Part shown: positions 7,224 to 30,283 of the stretch, in pieces
Layout of the letters: each line of letters begins with the position of its first letter
Position numbering within the stretch: position 1 is the stretch's first letter
Source: Streptomycetaceae bacterium
GTDB lineage: Bacteria; Actinomycetota; Actinomycetes; Nanopelagicales; Nanopelagicaceae
Direction: 5' to 3'
Length of the DNA: 33,663 nucleotides
Assembly: GCA_900298985.1 (NCBI GenBank)
Contig: OMHY01000001.1
Coordinates: 1 to 33,663 of the forward strand
Notes under the pieces: model-generated
Told to the model about the DNA's origin: nothing
The model's database searches: none
The model's input: only the letters and a program-made list of their open reading frames with translations
Translations under genes and position numbers: made by a program

Positions 7224-7242
7224 TAAAACTTACTTTCTAATT

Positions 7243-7275
7243 AAAAAGCACTGGGTGAAAATCCAGTGCTTTTTT
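7243..7275 (+). terminator. Rho-independent terminator after rpoC
   Basis: AAAAAGCACTGG-GTGAAAAT-CCAGTGCTTTTTT: perfect stem followed by a T run. Confidence 0.85.
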
Positions 7276-7329
7276 CTTGTTACTATTAATTACTTGCTAA
7301 CTGCAATTTAAAAGATTAAAGGAATTAAA

Positions 7330-7794
7330 TTGGAACTTACCCCCGCTAGTTACACAGTAACTCGATTAATTAATTCACCAATTGAAAATGTTTATGAGGC
7401 ATGGACCAACCCCGATCAATTAGCTACTTGGTACGGACCAGTTGGTTTAACTTGCCCGAGAGAATCGGTAACTCTGGATGTGAAAGTTGGTGGAAATTGG
7501 AGTGCCACAGTTGTTGATCCAACTGGCGGTCAACATCAATTCAAAGGGGAGTTTCGAGAGGTAATTCCATTGGAAAAACTCATCTACACTTTAGATTATT
7601 CAAATCCGGCAATGCCAAATATGCCTAAATATCCAGATGGTTTGCATGAAGTAGTTACCTTAACTTTTGAGAATAAAAATGGTTCTACTCAACTAACATT
7701 TCATCAAGATGGTTTTCTTCCTGAGAAACAAGTCCCACTTGCTCAAGCAGGTATGGAAAGTTATTTTGATTCTTTGGTTAATTTTCTTAATTAA
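7330..7794 (+). CDS. SRPBCC/AHSA1-family (START-like) protein
   Basis: TTG start with upstream AAAGGAA. VTRLINSPIENVYEAWTNPDQLATWYGPVGLTCPRESVTLDVKVGGNWS is typical of the AHSA1/SRPBCC family. Confidence 0.85.
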   Translation: MELTPASYTVTRLINSPIENVYEAWTNPDQLATWYGPVGLTCPRESVTLDVKVGGNWSATVVDPTGGQHQFKGEFREVIPLEKLIYTLDYSNPAMPNMPKYPDGLHEVVTLTFENKNGSTQLTFHQDGFLPEKQVPLAQAGMESYFDSLVNFLN

Positions 7795-7821
7795 ATTCTA
7801 GAATTGAGGTAGGTTATTAAA

Positions 7822-7959
7822 GTGGAAAACAAAGATTCAAACAACAATCAAACTCCTTCCAATTCATCAAACAGTGATAAAAGAATTCCGAGAAGTGTTC
7901 CCAAGCCTATAATGAAAACTTTGAATAAAGGTATCAGCCTTAATCAGCTTGGTAAGTAA
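7822..7959 (+). CDS. Small hypothetical protein (45 aa), absent from the supplied ORF track
   Basis: GTG start preceded by GAGGTAGG. Encodes MENKDSNNNQTPSNSSNSDKRIPRSVPKPIMKTLNKGISLNQLGK; its stop lies one base from the end of the convergent GNAT gene. Confidence 0.5.
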   Translation: MENKDSNNNQTPSNSSNSDKRIPRSVPKPIMKTLNKGISLNQLGK

Positions 7960-7960
7960 T

Positions 7961-8722
7961 TTATAGTTTTGAATAATAGACAAACTCATCAACCAAAGTA
8001 AAACCAACTGATTCATAAACATGCTTGGCAGTATCATTAAAATGCCAAACCCCAAGACATAGATCCGGATAACCTAAATGGTAAGAGGTAGCGACCAAAC
8101 GATTTACAAACTCTTTACCTATACCTTTTCCACGAAGATTTTGATTTACTGCAATGGATTGCGCAGCTAATTTCCCTGATTCCCATTTAGATAGCGCACC
8201 AATAGCAACAATTTCATCTGCCCCATCTAGCATCGCAGCCCAGCATTGAACCTCTTCTTCGCCTGGCCAAGTGGAAGCTCCATCAAAGTTTTCCTCTAAG
8301 AATTTCTTTATTTTTGGAAAATGTTCTGGAGAGTTCAAATTGTCTAGTGGTGTTAAAGAAGCATGATTTTTGGTATTAATAAGGTATGCATCCCAGCGCC
8401 CATCTTCAACAAAGGTCTTATCTGCTACCGTTTTCAGGAAATCTGGATCTTTGGCATTTGCAGAGATGGAAAAATGGTTCCAATTAGAATTGAAAGGGGC
8501 ATCTTCCCCAACACCCATTCCATAGAGGCCTTTTTCACCATCTTTTCGGGTTGCGCTAAAACTAGAATTCTTTATTGAGGCCTCAACAAAATGCTCTTTG
8601 GGGAACCAAAACTCTAGAAAATTAGGGGAGCCATAAAGTTCATAGGCCCAATGTAAAGAAATCTCATAACTCTTAGTGGTTAAGGCTTGCGACATTAGTA
8701 AATAATAGGATTTTTCAGACAA
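7961..8722 (-). CDS. GNAT-family N-acetyltransferase (start may be the internal Met at MSQALTTKSYE)
   Basis: C-terminal GNAT pattern SIAVNQNLRGKGIGKEFVNRLVATSYHLGYPDLCLGVWHFNDTAKHVYESVGF. Confidence 0.8.
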   Translation of the reverse strand: MSEKSYYLLMSQALTTKSYEISLHWAYELYGSPNFLEFWFPKEHFVEASIKNSSFSATRKDGEKGLYGMGVGEDAPFNSNWNHFSISANAKDPDFLKTVADKTFVEDGRWDAYLINTKNHASLTPLDNLNSPEHFPKIKKFLEENFDGASTWPGEEEVQCWAAMLDGADEIVAIGALSKWESGKLAAQSIAVNQNLRGKGIGKEFVNRLVATSYHLGYPDLCLGVWHFNDTAKHVYESVGFTLVDEFVYYSKL

Positions 8723-8958
8723 TAAGCAAAATAAATCCTTGCCGAAATCTACAATCTAGTTAGATTCCAAATAATGTAATCATTATTAATGGAAGGTAGT
8801 ACATTGAAAAAAGTATTAATAAAACAAACTAAAAACTAATGTATAAGCTTGATAAACCATTTGGAGCTCACTTCAAAAATAACTAGACAATCAAAAAATA
8901 GAACTAATTAGAAGTAGAAAATTAAAAATCATAATTTTATATGAAACTAGACCTAAAC

Positions 8959-9057
8959 TCATAAAACAAATAAGAGTAACCCGGCTACAGGAATTAATAG
9001 AATACCAAAAGTCCAAATTATCCAAAATATGGTATTTCTATTTGTCGTACTGAACAC
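8959..9057 (-). CDS. Possible very small single-TM peptide (32 aa) or remnant
   Basis: GTG-initiated frame MFSTTNRNTIFWIIWTFGILLIPVAGLLLFVL*. Strongly hydrophobic; no clear Shine-Dalgarno. Confidence 0.25.
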   Translation of the reverse strand: MFSTTNRNTIFWIIWTFGILLIPVAGLLLFVL

Positions 9058-9114
9058 TTACATTTGTTGCCTAAGCCAACGCCTTGGATCAATTTTCATA
9101 GAGAAGGAAAAAAT

Positions 9115-10359
9115 TTGATTAAAAAACTTACTTTGATAAAGATAAACAATTTTGACAAGTTTGAAATTACAGATAATAGCTTTAATATAAATAAAATAGA
9201 AAATGATAAATATGCAAATTTCAACTTAGTTTTTGGATTTAATGGCTCAGGCAAAACCACCATAAGTAAATCTTTATCACTATATAGTCCAAATAATTGG
9301 ATGTCAGATGAACTAAAAACTGAATTAGCAAAGGGCCTTGGGATTGAAAATGCTGGAAGTGAGATTCGCCTAAATAATTCAAATAACACCATCAGAACAA
9401 TAAACAACTTTCCCATAAAAAATATATTTGTGTTCAATAAAGAATTTGTTAACAGTCACGTATTCAATGGTGTTGAAGATAGAAAAAGCACAGTAAATCA
9501 AAAAGGTGCTAAGATAAAAAGTACCACCTTGAAAGATTTAGAAAAAAATATTATAGAGGCCAACAAAAAAATCAAGGAGCTCCAAGATAAGCAAAATAAT
9601 ATTAATGAAAAATTGAACTTATACCTCTTAGAAGGTCAAGAAAAATTGAGGATATATCTAGATTATGGGGCAAAGTTAACTCACAAAAAAATAGAAGAAT
9701 TCGTGAACGTAGAACTAGTTGACCTAGTGACAGCAGAAGGGGAAATTGAAGTAAAAGGAAATCTATTCAAAAATTCCAAATTCGAAGATCGGATATCTGA
9801 AAATTTGTCAAGATTGCATAAGATAACATTGGATTTTCAGGTCGAAAATTATGAATCAATTTTAGCCTTTTTATCAAAATCGACAGGTGACAAAATTGCT
9901 ACTGATTTACGAGAGCGTCTTGAAATTTTGAAAATAGATTATGAAGAGTCTTCGATCGGAGACTGGATTAAAACTTCTCAAAAATTGTTAACGTTAGTTC
10001 ATACTAGTGATAAAGACTTTTGCCCCACTTGTGGAAGTAACATCAAATTAATTTTGGAAGACTTAATTGGTGACTATGATAGATATTTTCAGATTTCAGA
10101 TATACATTTCTCTTCAACTCTAAGCTCATTTAAAGATGTTTTTAGATCATTTAGTTCTTTATTAAAAGAGGCATTGATTCAGATTGAAAATTTAAAGATG
10201 ATTTACCAAATATTTGACAATCAAGACGTAATTTTGAACATACGACAACTGGAAAATCGAATAAACAATCATTTAGCCTTTGTATCTGATTTTGAAAATT
10301 CACTTGTGGAAAAAGAGGCAAACCCAACAAAATCTAAATTTATAAAACTACCAACTTAG
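9115..10359 (+). CDS. N-terminal fragment of the AAA ATPase (Walker A, coiled coil, CPTC); the track start at 9064 is probably too early
   Basis: GAGAAGGA upstream of TTG 9115; LIKKLTLIKINNFDKFEI... then FGFNGSGKTTISKSL. Confidence 0.7.
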   Translation: MIKKLTLIKINNFDKFEITDNSFNINKIENDKYANFNLVFGFNGSGKTTISKSLSLYSPNNWMSDELKTELAKGLGIENAGSEIRLNNSNNTIRTINNFPIKNIFVFNKEFVNSHVFNGVEDRKSTVNQKGAKIKSTTLKDLEKNIIEANKKIKELQDKQNNINEKLNLYLLEGQEKLRIYLDYGAKLTHKKIEEFVNVELVDLVTAEGEIEVKGNLFKNSKFEDRISENLSRLHKITLDFQVENYESILAFLSKSTGDKIATDLRERLEILKIDYEESSIGDWIKTSQKLLTLVHTSDKDFCPTCGSNIKLILEDLIGDYDRYFQISDIHFSSTLSSFKDVFRSFSSLLKEALIQIENLKMIYQIFDNQDVILNIRQLENRINNHLAFVSDFENSLVEKEANPTKSKFIKLPT

Positions 10360-10407
10360 AATGGGTGCGTAGATGTCCATAGAAATGTAGTAGATACATT
10401 AAACTTA

Positions 10408-11553
10408 TTGAATGGCGTGATAGAAACGTGTTTAGCAATAAAGGTTTTGAATGCTAATCCAGAGAAAGATCTACGAAATTCAATTTATCGCTGGATATTT
10501 TCTAAATTGGCTTATTTTGAATCAGTGAATAATCTAGAGGACTTTAAGAATCTAAGCTCTTCTATCTTGACTTATGCAAATAGGATAAAAGAACTAGAAA
10601 GGCAATCCTCACAAGAGTATGCAAAATTATCGAATTTGCCTCAAAGTATGAATGAAATCCTAGAGGAATTAGGTATCCACGGACTTAAAATATCTACTAG
10701 CACAAATAATGAGGATTTAGGTTGGTTAATCGAATATCCAAATTTAGAGGATTCTAACGCAAAGGTCGTGCCAGGGCTGCGGCATAGTTTGAGTGAAGGA
10801 GAACTTACCTCTTTAGCTTTCGCCTTTTTTATTTTTAAACTGAAATCTGAAAATATGGATTTAGAGCTAGATGAATCGTCGATAGTTATTGATGATCCAG
10901 TATCAAGCCTTGATGAAGATAGGGTTATTCAGACAGCCTTAGCAATAAGGAATAAGTTTAAGGAGTATGGTCAAGTAATAGTTTTTAGTCATGATTTAAA
11001 GTTCCTAAAACACTTATATAAGATACTTCATACTGGAGATATAAATACTAGATGTAAATATTTGCAAAAAGATACAATTGTGGATTTTCCAAAAGTTTTC
11101 GGAAGTTTTGAAACTACATATTATTATATGTTAGGGGAATTATTGAGATTCAAACATGAAAAAATCAGTGAGCGATCCTTTGAACAAAAGGCTATAATTC
11201 CAAATTATTGCCGCAGAGTTTTAGAGTCATTTATGATATTTAAACTAGCAAAACTTCAAAAAGGTAATTCAAAATTAACACCTGGATTAAAAGATTGGAA
11301 GAAAGAGGACTTTAAGAGTTACCTATCTGAATCTGACACAGACAGATTATTAATGTTACTAAAGGATCTTGGATGTATTACTGACCCTTCAAGCCATGGA
11401 AATTTCTCCTTCAATATCGACTCTATGGAAATTCCAAAAGGGGGAGAGGGGAGAATGGTCGACATGGTTTTAGACGTAATTGAAACTCTTGATCAAGTTC
11501 ACCTTAAGTCAAGTGAGGAACTTGTGAAAATTGCTCAAGATAATCAAATATGA
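10408..11553 (+). CDS. C-terminal fragment of the same ATPase (ABC signature, Walker B, HEPN-like tail)
   Basis: Same reading frame as the upstream fragment, open from 10360. LSEGELTSLAFAFFIFKL, IVIDDPVSSLDEDR, VIVFSHDLKFLKHL. No SD before TTG 10408. Confidence 0.6.
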   Translation: MNGVIETCLAIKVLNANPEKDLRNSIYRWIFSKLAYFESVNNLEDFKNLSSSILTYANRIKELERQSSQEYAKLSNLPQSMNEILEELGIHGLKISTSTNNEDLGWLIEYPNLEDSNAKVVPGLRHSLSEGELTSLAFAFFIFKLKSENMDLELDESSIVIDDPVSSLDEDRVIQTALAIRNKFKEYGQVIVFSHDLKFLKHLYKILHTGDINTRCKYLQKDTIVDFPKVFGSFETTYYYMLGELLRFKHEKISERSFEQKAIIPNYCRRVLESFMIFKLAKLQKGNSKLTPGLKDWKKEDFKSYLSESDTDRLLMLLKDLGCITDPSSHGNFSFNIDSMEIPKGGEGRMVDMVLDVIETLDQVHLKSSEELVKIAQDNQI

Positions 11554-11625
11554 TTAGTTTTTGCATTTGATCTCATAAAATGGAAATAATTAAAGGTCAT
11601 AGATTTATTTCTTTAGGTGGTAATA

Positions 11626-11805
11626 ATGAATAAGAATGAAATGTCCAACGAAACACCTACTCCCATGTATCAGCGTTGGGCAAATGACAGGTTTGGCGAA
11701 ACTGTATTTGAATCGACTCTAGAATTGGAGGCGAGGTTCAAAAGGCTTGAACAGGAGTTTGAAAAGGGCCTAATAGAAGCCACTGGCCAATCTGACCAAC
11801 TATAA
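11626..11805 (+). CDS. Small acidic hypothetical protein (59 aa)
   Basis: AGGTGG five nt before ATG 11626. MNKNEMSNETPTPMYQRWANDRFGETVFESTLELEARFKRLEQEFEKGLIEATGQSDQL. The track start at GTG 11617 overlaps the SD. Confidence 0.5.
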   Translation: MNKNEMSNETPTPMYQRWANDRFGETVFESTLELEARFKRLEQEFEKGLIEATGQSDQL

Positions 11806-11878
11806 GTATCCCTCTAGACTCGCCCTTTTCGGCGTGTCGCAAACCAGGGGGCCGGGGCTAGGAGTATAAGAGCCCGTT

Positions 11879-11908
11879 TTGACCGCCTCTGGGATTTTAA
11901 GTTACTCT
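11879..11908 (+). promoter_or_regulatory. Candidate sigma70-type promoter for the rpsL-rpsG-fusA-tuf operon
   Basis: TTGACC-N18-TACTCT, preceded by the small GC-rich hairpin GGGCT...AGCCC (11855-11875). Leaves a leader of about 225 nt. Confidence 0.5.
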
Positions 11909-12139
11909 ACGCTTCTGCCTTTTTAACTAAAGGTTCACTTCTTGACGCTTGAATTAAGCAGCTCGTTGATGTTGATCAATGAAATCTGTTCTAAATTTTA
12001 GGTGCATAGATATGTAGCAGTCGCAACACACCCGACCGCGTGTATCGCTGAGTGAACATAAGTTTTAAATGCGAACAACTTAACAACAAAGAATTATTTG
12101 CAACTAGTAATACTTAATAATAAGGAAGAGTGGAAAACA

Positions 12140-28105: not shown

Positions 28106-28921
28106 ATGGCTATTACCCTCAAAAACCTAGAGCAATTAAAGGTAATGCGCCAAGCGGGGCTAGTAGTTTATGAAGGTTTAGAAGCGGTTAAAAAAGAAAT
28201 CGCGCCAGGTGTTACTACTAACCACCTAAATGAAGTTGCAATTAAAGTTTTGAAAAAAAATGGGGCCAAATCAAATTTTCTAAATTATCATGGTTATCCA
28301 GCTGTAATTTGTGCCTCTGTTAATGATGAAATAGTTCATGGAATTCCAAATCAAAGAAAATTGGAAGAGGGAGATATTCTTTCCATTGATTTTGGAGCAA
28401 TTATTAACGGTTGGCATGGAGATAGTGCATTCACAGTTGCGGTGGGCCAAGTGCGAAGTAATGAAGAAGCAAAGCTAATTCAAGTATGCGAAGATTCAAT
28501 GTGGCATGGAATTGCAGCAGCCACTGTGGGCGGCAGGTTAACTGATATTTCTCATGCAATTGAAAGTTATATTAATTCTCAAGGCACCTATGGAATATTG
28601 CGCGAGTATGGTGGACATGGAATTGGTACGGCAATGCATGAAGATCCACATGTATTAAATTTCGGGGCAGCAGGTTTAGGTCCAGAGTTACAAGTTGGTA
28701 TGGTTTTAGCGATTGAACCAATGCCTACTTTAGGAACTCATAAAACCAAAACTTTAGATGATGATTGGACTGTAGTCTCTATTGATGGTTCGCGAGGCGC
28801 GCACTTTGAACATTCCTTTGCTTTACTTCCTGATGGAAAACCATTTGTCTTAACTTCTCCCGATGGTGGACAAGAAAAACTTAGCTCCCTTGGAGTTGCG
28901 ATCTCAGATTTATTAAATTAA
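28106..28921 (+). CDS. map: Type I methionine aminopeptidase
   Basis: SVNDEIVHGIPNQRKLEEGDILSIDFGAIINGWHGDSAFTVAVG, EYGGHGIGTAMHEDPHVLNFG. Confidence 0.95.
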   Translation: MAITLKNLEQLKVMRQAGLVVYEGLEAVKKEIAPGVTTNHLNEVAIKVLKKNGAKSNFLNYHGYPAVICASVNDEIVHGIPNQRKLEEGDILSIDFGAIINGWHGDSAFTVAVGQVRSNEEAKLIQVCEDSMWHGIAAATVGGRLTDISHAIESYINSQGTYGILREYGGHGIGTAMHEDPHVLNFGAAGLGPELQVGMVLAIEPMPTLGTHKTKTLDDDWTVVSIDGSRGAHFEHSFALLPDGKPFVLTSPDGGQEKLSSLGVAISDLLN

Positions 28922-30247
28922 GAAAAGTTGAAATAAGGATTCCTTAGTATAGGAATTTATTGATTCTTCTAGAGTTATTGATTGTTCGGAATTCCAGGCA
29001 GGTGCATTTGGATTTTTTGGTGGCTGCCTTGTTACTGGTACATTTAAAGCTAAATTAGGATCTTCGGAGGTCACAGGCCAATCACTACCAAATGCAATCC
29101 GCGCACCGGAATCTAATAGGGATCGCAACTGATATTGGCGATTATTTCTCTCTTCTCCAATTGCTGGCAAAATCAATTTCTCATTCATTACATCTAAATA
29201 ACACCAAAGAGGTTGCATATTTGCAATTACCTCTAACTTCGCGAATCTAGGTAAATCCTGCTGTGAAATTAATTGAGCGTGTGCAATTACAGCCCTGCGA
29301 TCTCTATGCCCATTTTCACTTATTACATTTTCTATTGCATCCAAAGATTGCCTAATAGCCCCATCCCCAATAGCGTGGATATGTAATTGAAAACCTAATT
29401 TATCAAATTCTTTTGTTGCTTGATTAAGTTCTGCATCATCCCAGATTTTTAATCCAAGAGATTTTGGATTGTTTAAATATGGTTCAAGTAAAAAAGCAGT
29501 TCCAGCAGAAAGCGCACCATCAGTTAGGAATTTAATGCTATGGCAAGTTAAATTTTTTCCAGTTAATCTTTTTTTCAATTCTAAAGATTGGGCAAGGAGG
29601 CTTTGCCAATTTTGAGGTGTGGCTAAAAGTGCTAGATTGGTTGGAATTTGGATTACTTCATTCTTTAAAGCAGCTTCATATACGAAAACCAATTCTGGAT
29701 CCACCCAAGCATCCTGCATAGCAACTACATTATGGGATTTATATTTTTCATAAGCCAAAGCAAGTGAGGTTAAATCATCTTGCAAAGTTCTTCGCGGAAC
29801 AAATTTTTCAATTAGATTAATTGCAGATGGCTCTCTTAAAGTTCCAGTTGGATGGCCAGATTTATCTCTAGCTATTTGACCACCTTTAGGATCTGAAGTA
29901 TTTTTATTTAAGTTGGCAATTTCCAATGCCTTGCTGTTAACCCAGATAGTATGAAAATCCATGGCCCGAAGTAATACTGGTCGATCAAGTACCGCTTCAT
30001 CTAGCCATTCTCTTTTGAAGTCACCGTTTGGAATTAAGGCAGCTTCATAAGCTCCACCAACTATCCATTCTAAATTTGGATTTTTCCTGGCAAAGTTTTT
30101 CACCTCATTTATGATCTCTTCAACAGTATTTAGACCAGTCACTTGGGGACCTTGCATTTGGCGCCCTCCAAATACTGGGTGGCAATGAGCATCGACAAAG
30201 TTCAGTTTCTCCCCTGGAACCTGCGAAATTGGGATTTGCCCTTCCAT
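28913..30247 (-). CDS. Amidohydrolase-3 (YtcJ-like) family metal-dependent hydrolase; start at 30247 or 30277, N-terminus short
   Basis: FVDAHCHPVFGG (HxH), FTDGALSAGTAFLLEPY, FQLHIHAIGDGAIRQSLDAIE, RIAFGSDWPVTSEDPNLALNVPVTR. Confidence 0.85.
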   Translation of the reverse strand: MEGQIPISQVPGEKLNFVDAHCHPVFGGRQMQGPQVTGLNTVEEIINEVKNFARKNPNLEWIVGGAYEAALIPNGDFKREWLDEAVLDRPVLLRAMDFHTIWVNSKALEIANLNKNTSDPKGGQIARDKSGHPTGTLREPSAINLIEKFVPRRTLQDDLTSLALAYEKYKSHNVVAMQDAWVDPELVFVYEAALKNEVIQIPTNLALLATPQNWQSLLAQSLELKKRLTGKNLTCHSIKFLTDGALSAGTAFLLEPYLNNPKSLGLKIWDDAELNQATKEFDKLGFQLHIHAIGDGAIRQSLDAIENVISENGHRDRRAVIAHAQLISQQDLPRFAKLEVIANMQPLWCYLDVMNEKLILPAIGEERNNRQYQLRSLLDSGARIAFGSDWPVTSEDPNLALNVPVTRQPPKNPNAPAWNSEQSITLEESINSYTKESLFQLFLI

Positions 30248-30283
30248 TAGGCAAATATAAAGGTAAAAACAATGCAAAAAATG

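What the first reader, a model, noticed from the sequence alone, without database searches (positions are those of the whole stretch)
9115..11553. RloC/PrrC-like zinc-hook ATPase, candidate anticodon nuclease, between rpoC and rpsL
Reading through one TAG gives a single ~812-aa protein with Walker A (GFNGSGKTT), a coiled-coil-like region with a CPTC hook, ABC signature (LSEGE), Walker B/D-loop (IVIDDPVSSLDED), H-loop (FSHD), and a C-terminal domain with R-x3-E (CRRVLES) followed by SSH. Established: RloC combines an ABC ATPase, a Rad50-like zinc hook and a PrrC-type R/E/H anticodon nuclease of the HEPN class. The family assignment here is inference from motifs. Such a candidate tRNA-targeting toxin beside the translation operons would be notable.
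Basis: partly seen in the sequence, partly recalled or inferred. Interest (0 to 1): 0.6.

Follow-up and report, generated by a model that had tools for sequence, protein, structure and literature searches.

The report
Broken RloC-like tRNA-cutting defence gene
Between two core gene clusters of a small-genome actinobacterium sits a stray, probably broken copy of a known type of bacterial self-sacrifice gene (an RloC-like tRNA-cutting enzyme); it is a new, distant member of a known family, at a spot where relatives keep other assorted genes, so it is fairly ordinary.

Summary
Window 9115-11553 is one 812-codon reading frame interrupted once by TAG (codon 415). Read through, it is a full-length AAA_13 protein (PF13166, E=2.9e-39) with Walker A, CPTC hook, ABC signature, Walker B/D-loop, H-loop and a C-terminal R700-x3-E704-x56-H761 triad. 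Across 60 aligned sequences C303, C306, R700 and H761 never vary; E704 is E (53) or D (7). AlphaFold2 gives a Rad50/SMC-like ATPase with coiled coil. The C-terminal domain is all-helical and its top PDB matches are HEPN toxins, though below significance. RloC-like identity is well supported; tRNA cleavage is inferred. It pairs with a Desulfovibrionaceae protein (27% identity) in a branch whose E-to-H spacer (52-59) mostly exceeds the published 36-52. As assembled the gene is probably dead: TAG cuts off half the ATPase and the nuclease. An assembly error or polymorphism cannot be excluded. The location is not special. In 66 genomes (63 of this family) the rpoC-rpsL interval runs from 195 to 14,134 bp with varied cargo, and only one of 295 other family genomes holds any AAA_13 protein. 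Best reading: a low-GC, horizontally acquired, decaying defence gene.

The parts
9115..11553 (+). RloC-like gene (AAA_13 ABC ATPase + zinc hook + C-terminal HEPN-like nuclease domain), one reading frame interrupted by a single TAG
   Evidence: PF13166 E=2.9e-39 over residues 22-735; alignment with 59 homologues; 27% identity over 804 columns to an intact 805-aa protein
9102..9117 (+). Shine-Dalgarno-like AGAAGGA (9102-9108) and TTG start codon (9115-9117)
   Evidence: sequence read directly
9235..9258 (+). Walker A, GFNGSGKT (residues 41-48)
   Evidence: N43, G46, K47 invariant in 60 sequences
10021..10032 (+). CPTC zinc-hook motif (residues 303-306) between long helices
   Evidence: both Cys invariant in 60 of 60; flanking helices in the model
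10357..10359 (+). in-frame TAG (codon 415), after the hook, at the start of a returning helix, in a variable and often gapped alignment column
10789..10803 (+). ABC signature LSEGE (559-563)
   Evidence: S560 and G562 invariant
10882..10917 (+). Walker B and D-loop IVIDDPVSSLDE (590-601)
   Evidence: D593, D594, P595, S598, D600 invariant
10984..10995 (+). H-loop FSHD (624-627)
   Evidence: H626 invariant
11068..11550 (+). C-terminal all-helical domain (residues 652-812) with triad R700 (11212-11214), E704 (11224-11226), H761 (11395-11397)
   Evidence: R and H invariant, E in 53 and D in 7 of 60; AlphaFold2 model pLDDT 84; best PDB matches HEPN toxins, not significant
7330..7794 (+). AHSA1-domain gene, neighbouring cargo of the interval
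   Evidence: PF08327 8.1e-24
7961..8722 (-). GNAT acetyltransferase gene, neighbouring cargo of the interval
   Evidence: PF00583 1.4e-09

Best explanation
A horizontally acquired RloC-like anticodon-nuclease gene disrupted by one nonsense mutation. In the intact ancestor a Rad50-like ABC ATPase with coiled coil and CPTC zinc hook would keep the C-terminal HEPN-like domain (R700/E704/H761) silent; on sensing DNA breaks or phage attack, ATP-driven change of the head would release the nuclease to cut tRNA anticodons, stopping translation and phage growth. As assembled, the TAG at codon 415 separates the N-lobe and hook from the C-lobe and nuclease, so the cell would make only an inert 414-aa fragment and the gene is probably a young pseudogene. 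Shown: domain order, conserved motifs, homologues, near-absence of relatives in the family, variable site, stop codon. Inferred: tRNA substrate, trigger, loss of activity. The family part of this statement I hold at about 0.9; the figure below is for the whole, pseudogene included.
For: PF13166 match along the whole length. PADLOC PDC-S06 6.4e-36, and PrrC 1.8e-10 over the ATPase. C303/C306/R700/H761 invariant and E704 E or D in 60 sequences whose homologues were found through the Walker B motif only, so not selected for triad or hook. Intact 805-aa homologue in a Desulfovibrionaceae MAG, 6e-65. Rad50/SMC/PtuA folds for the full model, HEPN toxins ranked first for the C-terminal domain. RloC definition, triad and hook mutants: PMC2610378. 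HEPN assignment: PMC3710099. Activation by DNA breaks, also in an R-M-deficient host: PMC3874168. GC 29-33% against 38-43% in neighbouring genes. AAA_13 in only 2 of 296 family genomes, this one included. A UUG start fits the weak starts reported for some RloC genes.
Against: The HEPN match of the C-terminal domain is below significance (best E 0.34, TM about 0.4). E-to-H spacing of 56 lies outside the published 36-52. A single clean lesion with both halves otherwise conserved could be an assembly or sequencing error or a polymorphism, in which case the gene is intact.
Confidence: 0.62

Rival explanations
1. The same RloC-like gene, but intact in the organism: the TAG is an assembly or sequencing error, or a minority polymorphism, in a metagenome-assembled draft, and a functional defence protein is made.
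For: Only one lesion in 812 codons; codon-position GC bias kept in both halves; all motifs on both sides intact; the genome is a draft of 134 contigs, 89% complete.
Against: No read data available to support an error; a nonsense codon in a costly foreign defence gene is unsurprising.
Confidence: 0.28
2. Two-piece protein: the N-lobe/hook and C-lobe/nuclease halves are made separately (reinitiation at TTG 10408 or GTG 10417) and reassemble.
For: The break lies in the coiled coil, away from both ATPase lobes; the next in-frame start is 48 bases after the stop.
Against: No Shine-Dalgarno before 10408 or 10417; the nearest homologue and nearly all aligned ones are single chains.
Confidence: 0.03
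3. An SMC/Rad50-like DNA-repair or other ABC ATPase without nuclease activity.
For: Full-length structural matches are Rad50 and SMC heads.
Against: Rad50/SbcC lack the C-terminal domain with the R/E/H triad (PMC2610378), which is present and conserved here.
Confidence: 0.05
4. A gene functionally tied to the transcription and translation operons on either side (rpoC, rpsL).
For: Position only.
Against: In 66 closed intervals (63 of this family) the gap is 195-14,134 bp with unrelated cargo and none holds this gene.
Confidence: 0.02

Closest known systems
RloC (Geobacillus kaustophilus, Acinetobacter baylyi; PMC2610378, PMC3874168)
   Same: ABC ATPase split by a coiled coil with CxxC zinc hook; C-terminal R-x3-E...SH triad; stand-alone gene; weak start codon
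   Different: E-to-H spacer 56 against published 36-52; very divergent; interrupted by a stop codon
PrrC (E. coli)
   Same: ABC motifs and R-x3-E...H triad
   Different: PrrC has no hook insert, has a spacer of 31, and sits in a type I R-M locus; here there is a hook and no type I R-M domains were found in the draft genome
PDC-S06 (PADLOC candidate single-gene defence family)
   Same: best PADLOC match, nearly full length, 6.4e-36
   Different: a candidate class for which the library gives no mechanism
Rad50/SbcC
   Same: ABC head, coiled coil and zinc hook; best structural matches
   Different: they lack the C-terminal nuclease-like domain

Membership tests
RloC | ABC ATPase motifs (Walker A, signature, Walker B/D-loop, H-loop) | tested here: met
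RloC | coiled-coil insert with central CxxC zinc hook | tested here: met
   CPTC 303-306, Cys invariant in 60/60; long helices on both sides in the model
RloC | C-terminal catalytic residues R-x3-E and (S)H | tested here: met
   R700-x3-E704 and S760-H761
RloC | E-to-H spacer of 36-52 residues (range of the 2008 survey) | tested here: not met
   spacer 56; 52-59 in its own branch of eight, 36-59 in all 60. Hence filed as RloC-like, a long-spacer branch, not as RloC in the strict published sense
RloC | C-terminal domain of the HEPN fold | tested here: inconclusive
   all-helical, pLDDT 84; HEPN toxins at ranks 1-2 and recurrent, but E 0.34 or worse and TM about 0.4
RloC | anticodon nuclease activity, zinc-responsive | not testable with these tools
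   needs biochemistry; as assembled the nuclease domain lies behind a stop codon
PrrC | no zinc-hook insert | tested here: not met
   hook present
PrrC | linked type I restriction-modification locus | tested here: not met
   no HsdM-type (PF02384) or HsdR-type (PF04313) domain in the 89% complete genome; controls ring
Rad50/SbcC | no C-terminal nuclease-like domain after the ATPase | tested here: not met
   about 160 residues with a conserved R/E/H triad follow the H-loop region

The most novel reading that the evidence does not exclude
This protein and seven relatives with 52-59 residues between E and H form a distinct RloC branch (support 1.0 in a midpoint-rooted tree) whose enlarged nuclease loop selects a different tRNA or trigger, and the gene here is functional because the stop is an assembly artefact.
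Probability: 0.12. Interest if true: 0.4.

Novelty: new member of a known kind. Interest (0 to 1): 0.22.

Why it matters
It extends RloC-like defence genes to a streamlined actinobacterial family where AAA_13 proteins are almost absent (2 of 296 genomes), gives an example of such a gene apparently decaying after transfer, and shows that the gap between the rpoBC and str operons is a cargo site in this family that also carries toxin-antitoxin-like genes. It does not change the understanding of RloC itself.

Tried and rejected
Single-sequence searches of genome contigs, viral contigs and the PDB gave no relative; only an alignment query did. The 59-codon frame at 11626-11805 was considered as a partner or antitoxin and dropped: no relative in 60 genomes. 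Repeats that would mark a mobile element: only short, imperfect, chance-like pairs. Promoter- and terminator-like sites: fewer than in shuffles. No tRNA or Rfam element in the window. Stop-codon reassignment was rejected because TAG ends three other genes in the window. Triad distances in the model could not be measured because coordinates are not exposed.

Full report
Observation. The stretch 9115-11553 is a single frame with one internal stop, TAG at 10357-10359. The other two frames hold 96 and 98 stops, and 500 Markov resamples never had fewer than 43 in their best frame. A TTG start is preceded by AGAAGGA. Both halves match PF13166 (AAA_13) on their own, and the joined protein matches at 2.9e-39 over residues 22-735.

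What it is. Single-sequence searches found no relative in genome or viral contigs and only distant ones on plasmids (138 records, 21-30% identity among those listed; 110 of the plasmids conjugative). Seven of those already share R700, E704 and H761 with the window protein. An alignment-based search, seeded only on the Walker B motif, found 411 relatives, of which 79 loci were kept. In an alignment of the joined protein with 59 of them, N43, G46, K47, C303, C306, S560, G562, D593, D594, P595, S598, D600, H626, R700 and H761 never vary; E704 is E in 53 and D in 7; position 760 is S in 55 and H in 5. These are the features that Davidov and Kaufmann used to define RloC: PrrC-like ABC motifs, a coiled-coil insert with a CxxC hook, and Arg-x3-Glu-x36-52-His, often with Ser before His (PMC2610378).

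Spacer. The spacer between E and H is 56 here. In the 60 sequences it runs from 36 to 59. Nine have 52 or more, and eight of these nine, this protein included, form one branch of a midpoint-rooted FastTree (support 1.0), in which it pairs with a Desulfovibrionaceae protein (support 0.998; 27% identity, E=6e-65). Seven of the eight exceed the published range. I therefore file it as RloC-like, a long-spacer branch. The experimentally studied RloC proteins were not available to place in the tree.

Structure. AlphaFold2 on the 60-row alignment gave mean pLDDT 76 and pTM 0.59, with long helices on both sides of the hook. Foldseek places the whole model with Rad50, SMC, Lamassu and PtuA heads. The C-terminal domain folded alone (pLDDT 84, pTM 0.78) is entirely helical. 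Its best PDB matches are HEPN toxins (7ae6 at ranks 1 and 2; 7ae8, 7ae9 and MntA-HepT type entries recur), but E-values are 0.34 or worse and TM-scores about 0.4. I count this as consistent with, not proof of, a HEPN fold. The PrrC/RloC nuclease domains were assigned to HEPN in the literature (PMC3710099). No RloC or PrrC structure came up in the PDB by sequence.

State of the gene. The TAG comes after the hook, at the start of a returning helix, in an alignment column that is variable and often gapped. It removes the second ATPase half and the nuclease from the product. No Shine-Dalgarno precedes the next in-frame starts at 10408 and 10417. TAG ends three other genes in the window, so it is an ordinary stop here. 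No other lesion is visible. My judgement, not a measurement: a recently broken gene about 65%, an assembly or sequencing error or polymorphism about 30%.

Origin and location. GC is 29-33% against 38-43% in neighbouring genes. Of 296 family genomes only this and one other have an AAA_13 protein, the other being distant, 33% identical over a short stretch. In 66 genomes (63 of this family, 3 of other families of the class) with rpoC and rpsL on one contig, the gap is 195 to 14,134 bp. Its contents include HlyIII-like proteins (29 intervals), a nucleoside phosphorylase (17), PIN-domain proteins and MazE-type antitoxin domains, and one HipB/HipA-like pair; some of these genomes are close relatives of each other, so the counts are not independent. 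The window's own AHSA1, GNAT and RloC-like genes were found in none of them. The gap between the rpoBC and str operons is thus a general cargo site, and the position says nothing specific about tRNA toxicity or ribosomes.

Mechanism. From the literature: RloC cuts tRNA at the anticodon and excises the wobble nucleotide; Ala mutants at R, E or H abolish this; hook mutants are hyperactive (PMC2610378); DNA breaks activate it even in an R-M-deficient host (PMC3874168). The genome here shows no HsdM- or HsdR-type domain (draft, 89% complete), which fits RloC rather than PrrC. For this protein the tRNA target and the trigger are inferred only.

Verdict. The two points that raised its interest, a working toxin and a meaningful position beside translation operons, are not supported.

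Noticed in passing
rpoC-rpsL interval, window 7224-12130, and loci L041-L060, L142-L201: A variable cargo site between the rpoBC and str operons, 195 to 14,134 bp in 66 genomes, including PIN/MazE- and HipA-type toxin-antitoxin-like genes, HlyIII and a nucleoside phosphorylase.
   Followed up: partly
window 28913-30277 (-): An amidohydrolase (PF07969, 9.2e-65) on the minus strand directly after map, interrupting the ribosomal-protein cluster; possibly another cargo insertion.
   Followed up: no
window 11626-11805 (+): A 59-codon reading frame with an AGGTGG Shine-Dalgarno-like site and higher GC than the RloC-like gene; no relative in 60 genomes.
   Followed up: partly
L061:1079-2365 and L061:7326-8747: The closest intact homologue lies near a tyrosine-recombinase-like frame and beside one that looks like a type III restriction helicase subunit; read by eye only.
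   Followed up: no
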